From positions 1 through 32,681 of IMG/VR virus record IMGVR_UViG_3300027747_000283: a DNA stretch of 32,681 nucleotides. One strand, written 5' to 3'. This DNA is from a virus. The notes beneath the pieces are model-generated. The model was given only the letters and a program-made list of their open reading frames with translations, had not been told where the DNA came from and ran no database searches. Shown one piece after another: positions 7,143 to 26,317 of the stretch. Position numbers and translations under genes: made by a program. Position 1 is the stretch's first letter, and each line of letters begins with the position of its first letter.

Positions 7143-10100
7143 ATGCTTCTTGACTTACCAAAACTGGGGGCTGTTCAGTTTGATGATAATTTATCGGCTG
7201 AAGAATTAAGTTCCCAATTAGAACATTTAGCTAAAAAGTATGATTTTGAAATACCTAAAGGAAATGTAGGCTATGGTGAAATGGCTAAAAAAGCCTTTAC
7301 TCGTGGCACAAAACAACTAGGTTCTACTTTTGGTGACATCATTCCTGCTATGGCAGGTAAAGCTCTTGGGTTTGATGAGTTTGCTGAAAGACAGATGGGT
7401 GAGGCAAAAGCCACCCAAGAAGAAATAAATAAGTACTATGCTCCGCAATATAAAGAGCTATCGGACGTAAAAGGTATTACTGATGCTCCTGGATTTGTTT
7501 TAGAGACGATTGTTGAGCAAATACCTAATATCTTAACCTCGTTAATTCCTGGTGTTGGTCTTCAAGCAGTAGCCGCCCGAACAGCTGCCAATGGTATTGC
7601 TAAAAATCTTGCAGTTCAAGCTGCTGAAAAAGGGCTAGCTGGAGAAGCTGCAAATGCATTTATTGCCCAAGGTGTTAAACAATCTCTTCCACAATTAGCA
7701 AATATAAAAAGTGCCGCACAAAACGCTGGTATTTTCTTAGGCTCTTACGCACAAAATGCTCCCGAAGTTTTTCAAAATATATACGAAGAAACTGGCAAAC
7801 TTGAAGTAGGAACATCTTTATTGTTTGGTGCTGGTTCTGCCGCATTAGACTCTGTGCTGCCTTCTCAATTAGCCAAAAGCTTAACTGGTCCAATGAGGGT
7901 TGGGGTAGTAGAAAAAATACTTGAGAAGTCTGGCATGGACAAAGGCTTACTGCGTACAGTAAGCGCTAATATGTTAAAAGGCGCCGGTTTTGAAGGTATG
8001 ACCGAAGGTGCGCAAGAAGCTATTAGTATTGCTGCCGAACGATTTGTTTCGGATAACCCACAAGTATTTGGTAGTAAAGAGTGGAATCGCATCATGGAGT
8101 CCAGCGTCCGTGGCGCTGTAGGTGGTGCAGGATTTGGTACGGCTGGTGGTGCTACTGAAGCTGCTCGCCGTCAATCTCAATACAATGCTGCCCAACAGAA
8201 ACGTGCTGGTAGACTAGATCAATATAAACAAGCCGCTGATTTAAAAGCCGAAGCTGATGCCGCAGGGGTATCCGTAGAAGAGTACCAACAACTACAAGAC
8301 CAAGGCGAACTTCCTGGTTTAGAGACTGGTCCTTATACAGAACTATATGACGCTAATGCTATTAAAGCTCAAGCTAAAGAAGATGCCAAGCTAGCTAAAG
8401 AGGCTGCTAAAAATGCACCTAAAGATTTATCAGGCAAACAAGTAACTCTGTTTGATGAGAACGGGCAACCTACCAAAGCTGCTGAACTTGCCAAAACTAA
8501 AGGTGACAAAGCTGAAGCTAACCGCATCCGCCAAGCGGAGCAAAAAGAAAAGACCGCATTAAAAGAAGCTCAAGCTAAACTTAAAAAAGTACTAGGAGCT
8601 AAACAAGCAGACTTGTTTGAAGGTACTAAACTGCCTACAGCCAAAGAAGCCGAAGCCGCCTATAAAGCTGCTGAAGAAGAACGCAAAGCTAACGTTGGAC
8701 AACTTGGTTTATTTGGTCAACCAGCACCTGCAGCAACTACACCACCTCCAGCACCCGTGGCAACTGCACCAGAAGAAGTTATTGCCGAGCCTGTAGTTCG
8801 TGCTAAACCTACACCAGTTACAGTAGAACAACTTCCTACAACAATTGACGACTCTACATTTAGAACACTAGGTATTGGTCCAACCGCAACGTTTATTAGA
8901 AACAAGTTAATACATGGTAAAGATATTACCGACCCAGCTCAAGCTGCTGAAGTAAAAGCCGTATTAGAAGCGGCTGCAGAAAAACACAAAAACAAAGAAA
9001 CTAAGGCTAAGATATCTACGTTCTTATCACGTCCAGAGTTTCAACAATTTATACAGGAGACTTCAAATGAACCTATCGCCGGAACAAGTCAGCCTAGCAT
9101 TCAAGATACTACAGTCGCCCAAGACGTGTCTGGACTTGGACCTGCCCAAAGCATTACAAAACCTAACGCAGGAGGAGTGGCTGCACCTGGACTTTCTGTT
9201 GGACAAGATATTGCAGGAAAAGGAGCAGTCGAGCGTCCACTAGGGGTAAAAGAAGCTAAAGATGTAGCTAAAACCCAGACTAATGCTGAACTTATTCTTG
9301 AAGACCAAGCCCAAGAAATTGAAAAAAATGAAGTTCGCACTGCCTTAAACCTTAGTCGCAAAATAGATAAAACGGCGGAGAAAGAAGGGTTGTTGCCTAA
9401 TGAAGTTAATATTACTCCAGAAGATGTTAAAGAAGCCGTAGATATATTACGCTTGCCCGCACTGTTTAATAGCGCACTTGATTTGCAAGATAGCGTTAAC
9501 AATTTTGAAGACACCTCAGCTGGACGTGCTAAACGTGCAAGAGATATTACTCAGTTGCAAATGGTTAAAGAAGCCGTTGCTAAATCAGGCGCAGAAGCTA
9601 CTAGGTTATTAAATAATCTAATGACTGCCAGTCAAAAAGATAGGGCTGACGGTATTTCTTTTCTTAACAAGCATGGTAATGATTTATTTGATTCGGTTAT
9701 TGCTGGCAAAATTGTTGAGGCTAAACAACGCCTTGAAAGCGAAAGTAAAAACAAAGAACTTAAAAAAGAACAAGCGTCTCAAGCTGCTGAATTAGGCAAA
9801 GCCCGTGAAGCGTCTTCTGACCGCAGAAAAGAAAAAAGACAAGAAGCTGAACTTGAAGAAGATGTAGATTACTTATCCTATGGGCTTGCTGGCTTACCAA
9901 AAAGTATTGAAGAAGCCGTTGATAACAACCAGTTCCAAGAGTTTATTACTGGTCTAGCTGCTACCGAAACAGATCCTACAATTAAAGGCATTCTCCAAAA
10001 GATTGAGAAGATGCGCCTTAAGACCAAGACTAAGGTGGGTAAAGTAACCCGTAAAAAAGGCAGTCTTGGTGGGGAATCCGATGCTGGTGCATATGACCCA

Positions 10101-16313: not shown

Positions 16314-16544
16314 TTAACCTACTTTTGCAAGCAGTTTTGTCATCTTTTCAGCGTATTTGCCTGATACGATTGATTCACCCTTAAACCATGCATACACAGT
16401 CATTCTACTAACTTTAAAGTGTTCTGCAACATCTTGTACGGGTATATCCTTACTTAAACAAAACTTGCCTAACTTGACCCCAAGTAATTTAGAATCAGCG
16501 GACTTAATCTCATCCGCCATTGCTAGCGAATATCCTTTAGGCAT
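16314..16544 (-). CDS. Small Cro/XRE-like HTH DNA-binding protein
   Basis: This 76-residue protein has an ATG that overlaps the stop of the SSB-like gene (TAATG). Residues about 35-56 ('IPVQDVAEHFKVSRMTVYAWFKG') form a clear helix-turn-helix with the recognition helix 'SRMTVYAWF', and a basic C-terminal helix follows. Its size fits a Cro-like repressor or an accessory transcription factor. It sits between SSB-like and primase genes, so it may regulate replication genes. No target site can be assigned, although the dyads in the right part of the window are candidates. Confidence 0.75.
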   Translation of the reverse strand: MPKGYSLAMADEIKSADSKLLGVKLGKFCLSKDIPVQDVAEHFKVSRMTVYAWFKGESIVSGKYAEKMTKLLAKVG

Positions 16545-21629: not shown

Positions 21630-21838
21630 CCACCATCCGTTTCTTTTACGTACGACATATTGGGTTGTTCTCCCACATATACGTCTATACGTTTTATTTC
21701 GGGGTCTATGTTTTTAAAACATTTAATAGTGCTACTCATATCGGGGTAGTTTAATTCGGGAGTGTGTAACTCTCCCATATATTTATCCACATTCACTACT
21801 ATTTTTTCTACGTTACACATTACGTTCCATCTTCTCAT
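21599..21838 (-). CDS. Small protein of unknown function after DNA polymerase
   Basis: I choose the ATG at 21838 (79 residues), which overlaps the polymerase stop as TGATG and has GGAG seven bases upstream; an ATG six bases earlier would sit too close to that site. The product contains 'EKIVVNVDKYMGELHTPEL' and 'EIKRIDVYVGEQPNMSYV' and ends 'GGWMALKWETA'. It is beta-rich with no recognised family. Confidence 0.6.
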   Translation of the reverse strand: MRRWNVMCNVEKIVVNVDKYMGELHTPELNYPDMSSTIKCFKNIDPEIKRIDVYVGEQPNMSYVKETDGGWMALKWETA

Positions 21839-23664
21839 CAACATTCTCCATAAGATTTACCCATACCCGACTCACAGTTCAAAGGCAAATCCTTAGCCCA
21901 ATCAGGTCTCCAACGCATACAACTTTCCACATACTCTTTAGCCTTTTGTGCCTCATTCTCAGGTGCAATACAAGCCACCGCATCATGGACTGTTAACACC
22001 ACCTGATACCTTTGGGCTATCTTTAACATCTGTTCTGCAATCACACAACGAGCAACGGCTTGGCATAGGTTCTCTACAACCTTTCCACCATAGATTTTAA
22101 CCGCACCTTTACGGGTTTTATACTGATATTGAGTCTTTCCTTCGGGGTCAGTAAACTTTTCTAACGTGTCATATTTTTGCCATAAACCACTAGGTAATAG
22201 AAAGCCCTTTTTAGTAGGGTCAAACTCAACTGCGGCTACTACTCCGAAGTCGGCCCCTTGCCCAGTAAGCATCGCCTCTATACATCTTTGTGCTTGTGCC
22301 CAAAGTTTAGGAATCTTCGCATATGTCTGTCTATAAACACTTATGATACGGTTAGCTTCCCCTTCTTCAATATCCGTTCCAAATGCTTTAAGTTGCGCTT
22401 GGAATTTCTTAGCCCCCATGCCGTAGCCACATCCGAGAATTGTAGTTTTGCCAACGAACCTTTCTTCCGAAGTAATCTCGCTCTCGTTCTTTCCATATAT
22501 AGCTGAAGCCATGATCTTGTATACATCTTCGCCTTTCTCAAAAGCATCTAACAAATCTTGTTGCCCTGATAACCAAGCCACCACCCTAGCTTCAATCTGC
22601 GAGGAGTCGCAATCAATAATTACATACCCATGTGGCGGTTGAATAGCTTTCTTTAACTTGTTACCATTAACTCCACGACTAGGTAGGTTTTGCAGATTTA
22701 TTTTGTCGTCTCCGCCCCATCTTCCTGTGTGAGCCGCATAGTATTTAATCGGGACTGGTAATTTTCCTCGGCTTGCGATATCCATGAACCTTTGAGTGCG
22801 AGTTTCTTCAAGAGTTGTTTTGTTTCCGAGCCTTGCTGAGACAAGGACTTGGACTGTTGGGTCGGGATGTTCAAGCAAGGACTTAAACTCTTCATCTGTT
22901 TTGGCAAACGCATATGCTTCCTTTCCTGTTCTAGCAGATATTTTCATAGGGGGAACTACCCCCAGTTTAATTAGCAACTCAGCAAACTTTTGATTAGACA
23001 TAAGGTCGGCTAACTCCACCCCAGCATCCTTTAAAAGATTAGCCTTGATGTTCTTCACCGTTTCCAAATGGTCTACAAGTAAAGACTCATCCAACATCAG
23101 CGTAGGTTGTATAAACATCTTTAGCGTTGTGTCTATAACTTTTAACTCCTTTGTTGGGAAAGTTTTGTGTAATATATTGAACAATTTTCGGGTCAAATCC
23201 ACATCGTTCTTACAGTATTCCCCATACTGAGCCAAGTCTGCATCCGTAAAGTCTGAGCGATATTTACCTTTAGCATCAAGAACTTCTGTGCCTTTTTGCC
23301 CAAGGTTATAGCGTTCTACTAACTTAGCTAACGAACCGCCAGCATCTACTCCATGTGTCGCTCTTGCCATGCACAAAGTATCTAGGTAAGCCTTAGGTTT
23401 AATCCCATACTCCCAGTTAAGAATAGCCCCATCAAACATAGTGTTGTGTGCAAGCAACAAAGAAGTACCCCAGTTAATCTTTTGTAGCTCACGCTTGATT
23501 TCATAACGAGTGCCAGTAACCCATCTAGGCTTCTCATCATCAACGGCATAGGCTACCCCGATTACTTCAAATAAATCTGAACGGATATATTCCTCTGTGG
23601 TTAGCTTTGAAAGACTAAACTGCTGATCGTAGTAAGTCTCAAAGTCTAATGTAATTATGCTCAT
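21838..23664 (-). CDS. polA: Family A DNA polymerase with 3'-5' exonuclease
   Basis: This 608-residue protein starts at ATG in an ATGA overlap. The exonuclease motifs are complete: 'LDFETYY' (Asp7, Glu9), 'AHNTMFD' (Asp78) and 'YCKNDVD' (Tyr150, Asp154), so it should proofread. The polymerase domain has 'HTGRWGG', motif A 'DCDSSQIEARV' (Asp353), motif B 'RFVGKTTILGCGYG' (Arg402, Lys406, Tyr414) and motif C 'LTVHDAVACI' (Asp561). By alignment with E. coli Pol I, the residue at position 762 is Leu410, and motif C has Ala where most have Glu. There is no 5'-3' exonuclease domain, as is usual for phage enzymes. It is the replicative polymerase of this phage. The symbol is by family, not by orthology to the host gene. 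Confidence 0.93.
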   Translation of the reverse strand: MSIITLDFETYYDQQFSLSKLTTEEYIRSDLFEVIGVAYAVDDEKPRWVTGTRYEIKRELQKINWGTSLLLAHNTMFDGAILNWEYGIKPKAYLDTLCMARATHGVDAGGSLAKLVERYNLGQKGTEVLDAKGKYRSDFTDADLAQYGEYCKNDVDLTRKLFNILHKTFPTKELKVIDTTLKMFIQPTLMLDESLLVDHLETVKNIKANLLKDAGVELADLMSNQKFAELLIKLGVVPPMKISARTGKEAYAFAKTDEEFKSLLEHPDPTVQVLVSARLGNKTTLEETRTQRFMDIASRGKLPVPIKYYAAHTGRWGGDDKINLQNLPSRGVNGNKLKKAIQPPHGYVIIDCDSSQIEARVVAWLSGQQDLLDAFEKGEDVYKIMASAIYGKNESEITSEERFVGKTTILGCGYGMGAKKFQAQLKAFGTDIEEGEANRIISVYRQTYAKIPKLWAQAQRCIEAMLTGQGADFGVVAAVEFDPTKKGFLLPSGLWQKYDTLEKFTDPEGKTQYQYKTRKGAVKIYGGKVVENLCQAVARCVIAEQMLKIAQRYQVVLTVHDAVACIAPENEAQKAKEYVESCMRWRPDWAKDLPLNCESGMGKSYGEC

Positions 23665-24241: not shown

Positions 24242-24444
24242 CTTATTACCTTGTAGTAGTTTAAATTTCTTAGTTTGTAACTGAAGACAATCTTGCCTTC
24301 CATCTGTAAATCGTTGACATAAGCACAGGCTCGGTCTTTCTTTACCTTTAACCAACGAGCCACATCTTTAGTAGAAAAAGCATATTGGCTCTCCAGCATA
24401 CGCATCAACCGCACCTTGTTAGCATCACTCGGTAGGGTTCTCAT
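24238..24444 (-). CDS. Small winged-helix DNA-binding protein
   Basis: I start at ATG 24444 (68 residues, GAGAG five bases upstream); a TTG 12 bases earlier is possible. 'NKVRLMRMLESQYAFSTKDVARWLKVKKDRACAYVNDLQMEGKIV' is a helix-turn-helix followed by a wing strand 'FSYKLRNLNYYKVIR'. It overlaps the DUF6378-like gene upstream by 20 bases and the MarR-like gene downstream by ATGA. Two adjacent single-domain regulators suggest a paired control circuit, but targets are unknown. Confidence 0.7.
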   Translation of the reverse strand: MRTLPSDANKVRLMRMLESQYAFSTKDVARWLKVKKDRACAYVNDLQMEGKIVFSYKLRNLNYYKVIR

Positions 24445-24709
24445 CGCATCTCTCAATCAAAGCGGCATATCCACATATGTCTACCAAGTTGTCTCTGTGT
24501 GTTGGGTCATTAGCAAAACGTGCAACCTTTACAAGCATCATCATCGCCGCAACATCTTTAGCAGTGATCTCAGGGGTTTGCTTGTTGTTGATATACACAT
24601 CCCACATAGTCGCAATAGCCTTAAGGTTCTTGGCTGGATGCCCATAGGTTTTCTCCCTGTCGCCATAGATAATGGCATGGGCTTCTTTTAGTATCGTTGT
24701 TTCACTCAT
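24425..24709 (-). CDS. DUF6378-like protein
   Basis: The ATG at 24709 overlaps the upstream stop as TGATG and has GAGGAG upstream, giving 94 residues. 'LKEAHAIIYGDREKTYGHPAKNLKAIATMW', 'ITAKDVAAMMMLVKVARFAND' and 'HRDNLVDICGYAALIE' match the small all-helical phage family I know as DUF6378, found with replication and nucleotide-metabolism genes. The Glu/Asp-rich helices recall MazG-type folds, but no NTP-hydrolysing motif is clear. Confidence 0.8.
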   Translation of the reverse strand: MSETTILKEAHAIIYGDREKTYGHPAKNLKAIATMWDVYINNKQTPEITAKDVAAMMMLVKVARFANDPTHRDNLVDICGYAALIERCDENPTE

Positions 24710-25284
24710 CACATCTCCTCTACAAAACTTTTTAATTGGTCACTACGACTTGGATACCGCATCTTACGCAATGCCCTAGCTTCCAGTTGCCTAACCCTGT
24801 CTCTTGATACACCAAGTTCTTTACCAACCTCTTCTAGGCTTTTGTCATCATCAAACCGCAGACCTATAATCTGTTGTTCTCTGTAAGTTAAAGTCTTACG
24901 CACCGCATCCATAGTTTTCTTAAGTTCTTGCCCAGCAACCGAGTCCAATAAAGACTTTTGCTCACCATTCATCAGCACATGGAGTTCTTCTTTACCCATC
25001 ACCGACCAGCTACTACTTCTCTTTAGATTCATGGTTAGTTGTTCTTCTGTCCACAAGTCCGTAGGGCAAGCACCTAAAGCTTCCATGACTTGATTAGCCA
25101 CCTTAGTGAACTCTCCTTCCCTAGTCATTGGGGATATTCGCAACCCACACAACATATTTACATAAGATGTACCGCACCCAATAGCCCTAGCAAACTCTGA
25201 TTGGTTCTTATATCCTGCATCTTCGATGGCTCGTAACAACAAGTTATTACTTACCGAGACCTTGACTCTATACTCCTCACTCAT
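24709..25284 (-). CDS. XRE-type HTH fused to sigma70 region 4
   Basis: This 191-residue protein starts at ATG 25284, overlapping the nuclease gene by 8 bases. Residues about 14-80 are a Cro/CI-type HTH ('NQSEFARAIGCGTSYVNML', then 'ALGACPTDLWTEEQL'). Residues about 130-191 are a complete sigma70 region 4, 'LTYREQQIIGLRF', 'LEEVGKELGVSRDRVRQLEA', 'LRKMRYPSRSDQLKSF', very close to the RpoD C-terminus, including its last residues. Positions that contact the -35 element in E. coli RpoD (R584, E585, R588, Q589) correspond to R161, D162, R165 and Q166. Regions 1-3, which bind the -10 element and the polymerase core, are absent, so it cannot be a normal sigma factor. It may redirect host polymerase or bind -35-like sites. 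Confidence 0.85.
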   Translation of the reverse strand: MSEEYRVKVSVSNNLLLRAIEDAGYKNQSEFARAIGCGTSYVNMLCGLRISPMTREGEFTKVANQVMEALGACPTDLWTEEQLTMNLKRSSSWSVMGKEELHVLMNGEQKSLLDSVAGQELKKTMDAVRKTLTYREQQIIGLRFDDDKSLEEVGKELGVSRDRVRQLEARALRKMRYPSRSDQLKSFVEEM

Positions 25285-25612
25285 ACTTTCCTCCGTCTAA
25301 CATATCGTAAATAACTCCAGCATTAGGGAATCCCACCTTCAACAAATGCTTAAACTTATCTATCCCTGTCTCGTCTACAAGCACCGCTATACCGCCTGTA
25401 TTCATAATGTCCATTAGATTCTTTTCTTGTAGTGCAGTAGGCTTTCCACCGTTAGCTTTACACTCCACACCAATGAACCTACCGTGAATACAAGCGACAA
25501 TGTCAGGAACACCACTAGCACCATAACCACTAGCAACGGGGTAAAAATGGTAAGCACCAACATCTTTAAGAAGTTTGACAACATTATTCTTTACCTTTTT
25601 CTCAGGGGTCAT
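25277..25612 (-). CDS. VRR-NUC nuclease
   Basis: This 111-residue protein starts at ATG in an ATGA overlap with the mini sigma4-like gene. 'ASGVPDIVACIHGRFIGVECKA' holds the Asp and the E-x-K catalytic core (PD ... ECK), followed by 'GKPTALQEKNLMDI' with the conserved Gln, the signature of stand-alone VRR-NUC enzymes of phages. These nucleases act on branched DNA, such as Holliday junctions or replication debris. It lies between the two sigma4-like genes, away from the other recombination genes. Confidence 0.88.
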   Translation of the reverse strand: MTPEKKVKNNVVKLLKDVGAYHFYPVASGYGASGVPDIVACIHGRFIGVECKANGGKPTALQEKNLMDIMNTGGIAVLVDETGIDKFKHLLKVGFPNAGVIYDMLDGGKYE

Positions 25613-25767
25613 AGGACATCTTCCAGCTTTATACCTCGTTCTTCCAAAGCTTTCTTAAGTTTATCCATAGCTTGTTTTTCTATATAGTTCACCATGCTTC
25701 TGCTAACTCCTATAGCTTGGGCTATTTCGGTTTGAGTCATTTCAAAATGCTCTTGTAATTGGTTCAT
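25609..25767 (-). CDS. 52-aa sigma region-4-like HTH protein
   Basis: This short gene is locked in place by ATGA overlaps on both sides (stop 25609-25611; start codon 25765-25767). The product carries 'MTQTEIAQAIGVSRSMVNY' and 'IEKQAMDKLKKALEERG'. The HTH and following helix match sigma region 4.2 (compare SRxRVRQIExxALxKL). At the positions that read the -35 box in RpoD it has Arg23, Ser24, Asn27 and Tyr28 where RpoD has Arg, Glu, Arg and Gln, so DNA specificity should differ. It could also be a generic small HTH protein. Confidence 0.7.
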   Translation of the reverse strand: MNQLQEHFEMTQTEIAQAIGVSRSMVNYIEKQAMDKLKKALEERGIKLEDVL

Positions 25768-26288: not shown

Positions 26289-26317
26289 ATTATAACCACT
26301 AAATATTCCAATAGCAA
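26289..26317 (-). promoter_or_regulatory. Sigma70 promoter, TTGCTA-17-TATAAT
   Basis: On the - strand TTGCTA (26312-26317, four of six to consensus) is separated by 17 bp from a perfect -10 TATAAT (26289-26294). It sits in the 67-bp gap between the 269-aa and 92-aa genes and would start the regulator and polymerase section of the operon. A second TATAAT (26278-26283) has no -35. Confidence 0.65.

What the first reader, a model, noticed from the sequence alone, without database searches (positions are those of the whole stretch)
24709..25284. XRE-type HTH fused to an RpoD-like sigma region 4, lacking regions 1-3
The C-terminal 60 residues read like the very end of a primary sigma factor and keep the residues that contact the -35 box, but the -10 and core-binding regions are replaced by a Cro/CI-like HTH. 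This suggests a transcription factor that uses the sigma4/beta-flap contact or -35 recognition to redirect host polymerase, perhaps with the XRE part binding a second site. Phage genes made from a sigma4 domain are known, but this fusion is not one I can name.
Basis: partly seen in the sequence, partly recalled or inferred. Interest (0 to 1): 0.7.

Follow-up and report, generated by a model that had tools for sequence, protein, structure and literature searches.

The report
Phage repressor-fold and sigma-region-4 fusion
A freshwater-type phage gene joins a repressor-like DNA-binding domain to the tail end of a bacterial sigma factor; many uncultured phages carry the same fusion, and it probably steers the host's RNA polymerase to phage genes, though no experiment has tested this.

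Summary
The ORF at 24709-25284 (-) encodes 191 aa. Residues 131-190 are a bona fide RpoD-like sigma region 4 (Pfam 2.5e-17; aligned to the last residues of solved RpoD chains). Residues 5-84 fold as a Cro/CI (XRE) domain: AlphaFold pLDDT 95.8, best structural matches ImmR, SinR, CylR2, P22 c2 and 434 Cro. A profile comparison prefers XRE (P 96%) to sigma region 3 (13%). No region-2 gene was found in 20 records of the family. The fusion is conserved: 73 of the 80 kept IMG/VR relatives carry the N-terminal domain, under purifying selection. In 84,980 cellular genomes the only true hit was a viral contig misbinned in a MAG. It sits in replication, recombination or packaging gene clusters. My ten paper searches found no description of it, although sigma4-only 'minimal' phage sigma factors and sigma4 mimics (gp33, AsiA, SigO) are known. 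Best reading: a host-polymerase-directed transcription factor in which XRE gives a phage-specific site and sigma4 takes the flap/-35 position. The function is inferred. Novelty: new variant of a known kind.

The parts
24709..25284 (-). XRE-sigma4 fusion gene, 191 aa, whole coding sequence with stop
25033..25272 (-). Cro/CI (XRE) type domain, residues 5-84 (strand 5-10; helices 14-22, 28-35, 39-46, 61-70, 74-77)
   Evidence: AlphaFold of residues 1-98, pLDDT 95.8; VIA-align Z 8.3 to ImmR, 7.9 SinR, 7.7 P22 c2; hhalign XRE 96% vs sigma3 13%
24895..25032 (-). linker, residues 85-130 (41-63 residues in relatives), including strand 91-96 and the first sigma4 helix 112-129; lowest confidence at residues 101-120
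24715..24894 (-). sigma region 4 of RpoD type, residues 131-190
   Evidence: Pfam Sigma70_r4 2.5e-17; RpoD/SigA chains
26289..26317 (-). sigma70-like promoter TTGCTA-17-TATAAT, 10 of 12, upstream of the gene run that leads into the fusion gene; conserved in L001, L002, L003 and L006
25277..25612 (-). upstream neighbour, VRR-NUC-like endonuclease (phrog_93), overlaps the start of the fusion gene
24425..24712 (-). downstream neighbour (phrog_474 'phosphofructokinase' family), overlaps the stop of the fusion gene
21838..23664 (-). family A DNA polymerase of the same co-directed gene run; abuts the fusion gene in several relatives

Best explanation
A phage transcription factor that acts on the host RNA polymerase. 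The N-terminal Cro/CI-type domain, probably as a dimer, binds a phage-specific DNA site. The tethered RpoD-type region 4 then occupies the beta flap tip and the -35 position at that promoter, in place of or beside host sigma region 4, while host sigma70 region 2 still opens the -10. It would thereby switch host polymerase to phage middle or late promoters after sigma70-type promoters have started the early genes. Shown by computation: the two domains, the long variable linker, conservation of the family, absence of a recognisable region 2 or T7-type polymerase, and host-type promoters in the window. Inferred: DNA binding by the XRE part, flap binding, activation rather than repression, and the timing.
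For: Sigma4 keeps most -35-reading positions over 44 members: R/K at the R584 position 33 of 44, E/D at E585 39 of 44, Q at Q589 34 of 44, R at R588 41 of 44. Leu at the L607 position, outside the DNA helix, 31 of 44. XRE fold. The XRE recognition helix is the most variable helix of that domain (mean entropy 2.26 bits against 1.16 for the sigma4 recognition helix), as expected of a site-specific reader joined to a constant module. Linker 41-63 residues. Sigma70-type promoters in the window, one 12 of 12, and a TTGACA kept across lineages. No Sigma70_r2 in 20 of 20 records (control rang in 10 of 14 genomes). [quoted passage not shown]
Against: No site for it was found. The repeated palindrome TTAACA-NN-TGTTAA is replaced by unrelated palindromes in L063 and L064, whose fusion proteins read the same. 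The N-terminal domain is not basic (net charge -3 to +9 over 44 members, 22 of 44 negative). A lone sigma4 must compete with the tethered sigma4 of host sigma70, and no AsiA-like helper was sought. Among close relatives sigma4 changes faster than XRE: L006 is 89% identical in XRE and 65% in sigma4, with an altered recognition helix. The low entropy of the sigma4 helix is partly a search artefact, because one search pattern lay there.
Confidence: 0.45

Rival explanations
1. A repressor or roadblock: the sigma4 half binds -35-like sequences, the XRE half adds affinity, and together they occlude host or early phage promoters against sigma70 holoenzyme, with no positive role.
For: XRE domains are mostly repressors (family names); -35 residues kept; early sigma70-type promoters present to be shut off.
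Against: The C-terminal helix at the flap-contact end is partly kept (Leu at the L607 position 31 of 44), which a pure DNA blocker would not need. A free sigma4 usually binds -35 DNA weakly (recalled).
Confidence: 0.2
2. Half of a split sigma factor: it works with a separate, divergent region-2-like phage protein, as in SigO-RsoA or gp33-gp55.
For: SigO-RsoA and gp55/gp33 exist (PMC8103513 and PMC2988020, passages). The related records still hold small ORFs without a name.
Against: 0 of 20 records of the family have Sigma70_r2 at E<=0.01, while the control rang in 10 of 14 genomes; the records may be fragments and a gp55-like partner could be missed.
Confidence: 0.12
3. An elongation or antitermination factor: the sigma4 half grips the flap of paused polymerase near a DNA site bound by the XRE half, like lambda Q.
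For: The flap is also the site of lambda Q (PMC2988020, passage). In one lineage the gene lies between terminase and portal genes (L068).
Against: Lambda Q lacks a canonical RpoD-type region 4 (recalled). In the other lineages that I examined the gene is in the replication or recombination region, not next to a late promoter.
Confidence: 0.08
4. The XRE fold is only a dimerisation or protein-binding piece and the protein is a sigma4-only 'minimal sigma factor' in function.
For: N-terminal domain near neutral or acidic in most members. Sigma4-only phage proteins with other N-termini came up in the same searches (L086, L088-L093). Minimal sigma factors are described in jumbo phages (PMC7824862, passages).
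Against: The recognition helix of the XRE domain varies most while its framework is kept, which fits DNA reading better than a fixed protein contact.
Confidence: 0.15

Closest known systems
Minimal (single-HTH, sigma4-like) sigma factors of group 2 jumbo phages (PMC7824862, passages read)
   Same: Phage-encoded, sigma4-like HTH alone, no region 2, host polymerase presumed target
   Different: Those are described as just the single HTH; here an XRE domain and a linker of 41-63 residues precede it, on viral contigs of 4-65 kb
T4 AsiA plus MotA, sigma appropriation (PMC6755090, passages read)
   Same: A phage factor fills the sigma4 place on the flap and anchors upstream DNA, another domain reads a phage box
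   Different: Two proteins, neither a sigma4 relative by sequence (recalled); AsiA removes host sigma4 first. Here one polypeptide with a true sigma4
T4 gp33 (with gp55), late transcription (PMC2988020, passages read)
   Same: Sigma4 mimic on the beta flap
   Different: gp33 does not read DNA sequence and needs gp55 and the sliding clamp; no region-2 gene found here
SigO-RsoA split sigma of Bacillus subtilis (PMC8103513, passages read)
   Same: Sigma4 carried by a protein without sigma2
   Different: Needs RsoA for sigma2; no such partner found here; no XRE domain (recalled)
ArpU / RinA / Ltr late regulators (PHROG 36 hit; PMC13123087, passages on Ltr)
   Same: Phage regulators with an HTH to which the sigma4 half shows weak similarity (phrog_36 5.7e-6)
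   Different: No RpoD-type C-terminus and no XRE N-terminus known (recalled)
Lambda CI N-terminal domain bound to sigma4 on DNA (PDB 1rio, sigma chain listed; complex recalled)
   Same: The same two folds side by side at a -35
   Different: There two proteins, with CI contacting a separate sigma4; here covalently joined

Membership tests
Sigma-70 region 4 (Pfam PF04545) | Score over the curated cut-off | tested here: met
   62.5 bits against 24.1; 44 of 44 aligned members match at E<=0.01
Sigma-70 region 4 (Pfam PF04545) | -35-contact residues kept | tested here: met
   R161, D162 (Glu to Asp), R165, Q166; counts over 44 members; roles recalled
Complete sigma-70 factor | Region 2 present | tested here: not met
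   No region 2 in the protein and no Sigma70_r2 in 20 records
Complete sigma-70 factor | Region 3 present | tested here: not met
   N-terminal profile vs 22 sigma3 sequences: hhalign 12.7%, score 21, below the generic sigma3-XRE match of 50%, score 25
XRE / Cro-CI family | Five-helix lambda-repressor-like fold | tested here: met
   Model helices and Z 8.3 to 7.3 with ImmR, CylR2, SinR, P22 c2, 434 Cro over 61-65 residues; Foldseek alone gave no match at E<=0.001
XRE / Cro-CI family | Sequence profile similarity | tested here: met
   hhalign 96%, E 2.8e-9, 63 columns, against 26 XRE domains; relative L078 passes the HTH_3 cut-off; the query alone has no Pfam hit
XRE / Cro-CI family | Binds an operator | not testable with these tools
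   The repeated palindrome does not follow the protein
Split sigma (SigO-RsoA type) | Separate sigma2 partner encoded nearby | tested here: inconclusive
   0 of 20 records, which may be fragments
ArpU/RinA late regulators | Best match to that family rather than to RpoD | tested here: not met
   phrog_36 5.7e-6 against phrog_351 (sigma factor) 1.9e-18

The most novel reading that the evidence does not exclude
One-protein sigma appropriation: a phage activator family that carries its own sigma region 4 and swaps it for the host's at promoters chosen by a fast-evolving Cro/CI domain, doing with one polypeptide what T4 does with AsiA and MotA, and spread over many different uncultured phages.
Probability: 0.3. 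Interest if true: 0.75.

Novelty: new variant of a known kind. Interest (0 to 1): 0.5.

Why it matters
If right, a widespread group of phages replaces only the -35-reading part of the host holoenzyme and adds its own address label. That would give a compact natural tool for redirecting bacterial RNA polymerase, and a direct test of whether a detached sigma4 can displace the tethered one. It would also give function to a family that public databases appear to mislabel (one apparent member is named 'Sigma-70 region 3 domain protein').

Tried and rejected
(1) N-terminal domain as a relic of sigma region 3, suggested by RpoD alignments reaching residue 15 of L025 and by a database name: rejected by profile comparison. 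(2) The palindrome TTAACA-NN-TGTTAA as this protein's operator, including the idea that its half-site resembles a -35 element and that sigma4 reads it: four perfect and two one-mismatch copies in the window, no six-base-arm family of three copies in 30 shuffles, and repeated palindromes in several relatives. But L063 and L064 share 97% DNA over the gene and a fusion protein that reads the same, yet carry different palindromes, so another protein probably reads them. (3) T7-type RNA polymerase in the family's records: 0 of 20 (control silent); the same family rang in T7 and not in the window. (4) The same fusion in isolated phages: tblastn of six members against 50,697 phage records gave no record that I could identify as the fusion. 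The matches listed are mostly sigma4 or RpoD-like, many rows were not listed, and the unannotated faecal contigs were not opened. One search had five records covering over 80% of L068 at about 34% identity and two covering over 80% of L078 at about 25%; these were not followed up. Plasmids: one record covered over 80%, annotated RpoD/SigA. (5) Promoter-like sites overall are not enriched (36 against 44.9 expected); only the intergenic 10-12 of 12 sites were used. (6) Paper searches: ten found no description of the fusion; the held library lacks most subscription journals.

Full report
What is there. The ORF at 24709-25284 on the minus strand has 191 codons, an ATG start and a good ribosome site, and overlaps its neighbours slightly on both sides. 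It lies in a run of co-directed genes of a 32,681-base virus record. Downstream are a family A DNA polymerase, an exonuclease, a helicase and a primase-helicase; directly upstream is a VRR-NUC-like endonuclease (the names VRR-NUC and family A are mine, from the PHROG labels 'endonuclease' and 'DNA polymerase' and the sequence). The structural genes lie on the other strand.

C-terminal half. Pfam Sigma70_r4 matches at 2.5e-17, RpoD models of NCBIfam at up to 1.1e-22, the best of them from residue 108 or later, and PHROG 351 (sigma factor) at 1.9e-18. In solved structures the best sequence matches are SigA and RpoD chains; in the alignments shown the match runs to their last residues with only short gaps near residue 145. 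The -35-reading positions R584, E585, R588 and Q589 of E. coli are Arg, Asp, Arg and Gln here. Positions are mapped; their roles are recalled. Over the 44 aligned members R or K stands at the first in 33, E or D at the second in 39, R at the third in 41 and Q at the fourth in 34.

N-terminal half. Neither Pfam (E<=0.05) nor PHROGs (E<=0.01) sees a family in residues 1-98 of the query. AlphaFold on 44 relatives gives pLDDT 86.4 for the whole (pTM 0.57, so the mutual placement of the halves is not fixed) and 95.8 for residues 1-98 alone. Foldseek's own E-values are weak (best 0.11). VIA-align on its candidates gives Z 8.3 to the ImmR DNA-binding domain, 7.9 SinR, 7.7 P22 c2 and 7.5 434 Cro over 61-65 residues. 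Relative L078 passes the curated cut-offs of both HTH_3 and Sigma70_r4.

The family. A scan of IMG/VR with a 12-member alignment found 110 relatives, of which 80 were kept. Of these, 73 carry all or part of the N-terminal domain (a few are cut by contig ends, e.g. L012, L066, L067, L073) and 7 are sigma4 proteins with other N-termini. For the alignment I took 44 sequences, leaving out duplicates, near-duplicates and truncated ones. Identity to the query falls to 26-30%. Against L003, L004 and L006 the gene shows dN/dS of about 0.07, 0.19 and 0.24. A scan of 84,980 genomes with the N-terminal domain of the near subfamily gave two contigs. One is 100% identical to viral contig L045 over 3,365 of its 3,639 bases; the other shows no fusion protein in its reading frame. 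The family is therefore viral at this sensitivity, which covers the near subfamily only.

Neighbourhoods. A relative of the window's DNA polymerase lies in 17 of 73 loci, abutting or overlapping the fusion gene in several (L010, L025, L026, L028, L042, L063, L064), and a relative of its helicase in 15 of 73. In L081 the order is primase, fusion, helicase, polymerase; in L033 the fusion follows Erf and exonuclease genes; in L068 it lies between terminase and portal genes. No Sigma70_r2 was found in 20 of 20 records searched. No T7-type polymerase was found in the same 20 (silent control); in a separate run T7 rang and the window did not.

Promoters. The window has a 12 of 12 sigma70 promoter with extended -10 at 31471-31443 (-), an 11 of 12 one at 17867-17839 (-) whose TTGACA is kept in several lineages, and a 10 of 12 one at 26317-26289 (-) that leads into the fusion gene's operon and is kept in L001, L002, L003 and L006. 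Promoter-like sites as a whole are no more frequent than in shuffles. So early expression by host sigma70 is likely, and the phage still needs a way to time later genes.

How it may work. Across the family the XRE recognition helix is the most variable helix of that domain (mean entropy 2.26 bits) and the sigma4 recognition helix one of the least variable stretches (1.16); the linker is 41-63 residues. One caution: a search pattern lay in the sigma4 helix, so part of its constancy is selection by the search. Another: among the closest relatives the order is reversed. L004 and L006 differ from the query more in sigma4 (65% identity each) than in XRE (82% and 89%), and L006 has a changed sigma4 recognition helix. 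I read the protein as an activator that brings its own sigma4 to a site chosen by the XRE domain. [quoted passage not shown] None of the steps after folding is shown here.

A lead that failed. The palindrome TTAACA-NN-TGTTAA occurs six times in the window with at most one mismatch, all in 24-32.5 kb. Five copies stand shortly before a start codon and one (24018) lies inside a coding frame. Several related phages have their own repeated palindromes. L063 and L064, with a fusion protein that reads the same, have different ones, so these are probably sites of another, immunity-like regulator.

Verdict. A real, conserved phage protein family with a two-domain layout that I could not find described in ten searches. 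It is a new variant of the known kind 'phage sigma4-like factors that work on host RNA polymerase'. Its mechanism is a reasoned guess.

Noticed in passing
window 24018, 25983, 28610, 30124, 31392, 32445 (14 bases each): Repeated 14-base palindrome TTAACA-NN-TGTTAA, five copies just before start codons and one inside a coding frame; stoperator-like. Relatives L054, L063, L064, L082 and sigma4-only phages L088-L090 (CTAACA-N-TGTTAG, six perfect copies each) carry other repeated palindromes.
   Followed up: partly
window 25609-25767 (-): A 52-aa protein that is only the second half of sigma region 4 (Sigma70_r4 positions 20-50, 34.7 bits), two genes upstream of the fusion; relatives in 7 of 73 loci.
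   Followed up: partly
L092:9950-10513 (and L020 near 8001-8927): Phage protein joining sigma region 4 to an RNA polymerase alpha C-terminal domain (both over Pfam cut-offs in L092; L020 read by eye): two host-polymerase parts in one protein.
   Followed up: partly
L006:3404-3979: 79% identical relative whose sigma4 recognition helix reads KQGVGFIESRALRKL in place of RDRVRQLEARALRKM; possible change of -35 specificity.
   Followed up: partly
L094 (JAURHD010000045.1): Contig filed in a Cephaloticoccus MAG is 100% identical over 3,365 bases to an IMG/VR phage contig (L045); probably viral contamination of the MAG.
   Followed up: yes
window 31443-31471 (-): Perfect TTGACA-17-TATAAT promoter with TG before the -10, upstream of an AAA ATPase gene and followed by one of the palindromes.
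   Followed up: no
L063 and L064, near 7907: Sharp break between 97% identical DNA (including the fusion gene) and mostly 64-79% identical DNA upstream; looks like recombination that swaps the palindrome-bearing part.
   Followed up: no
window 16314-16544 (-): 76-aa HTH protein of the same gene run, with a sub-threshold HTH_3 match; one candidate reader of the palindromes.
   Followed up: no
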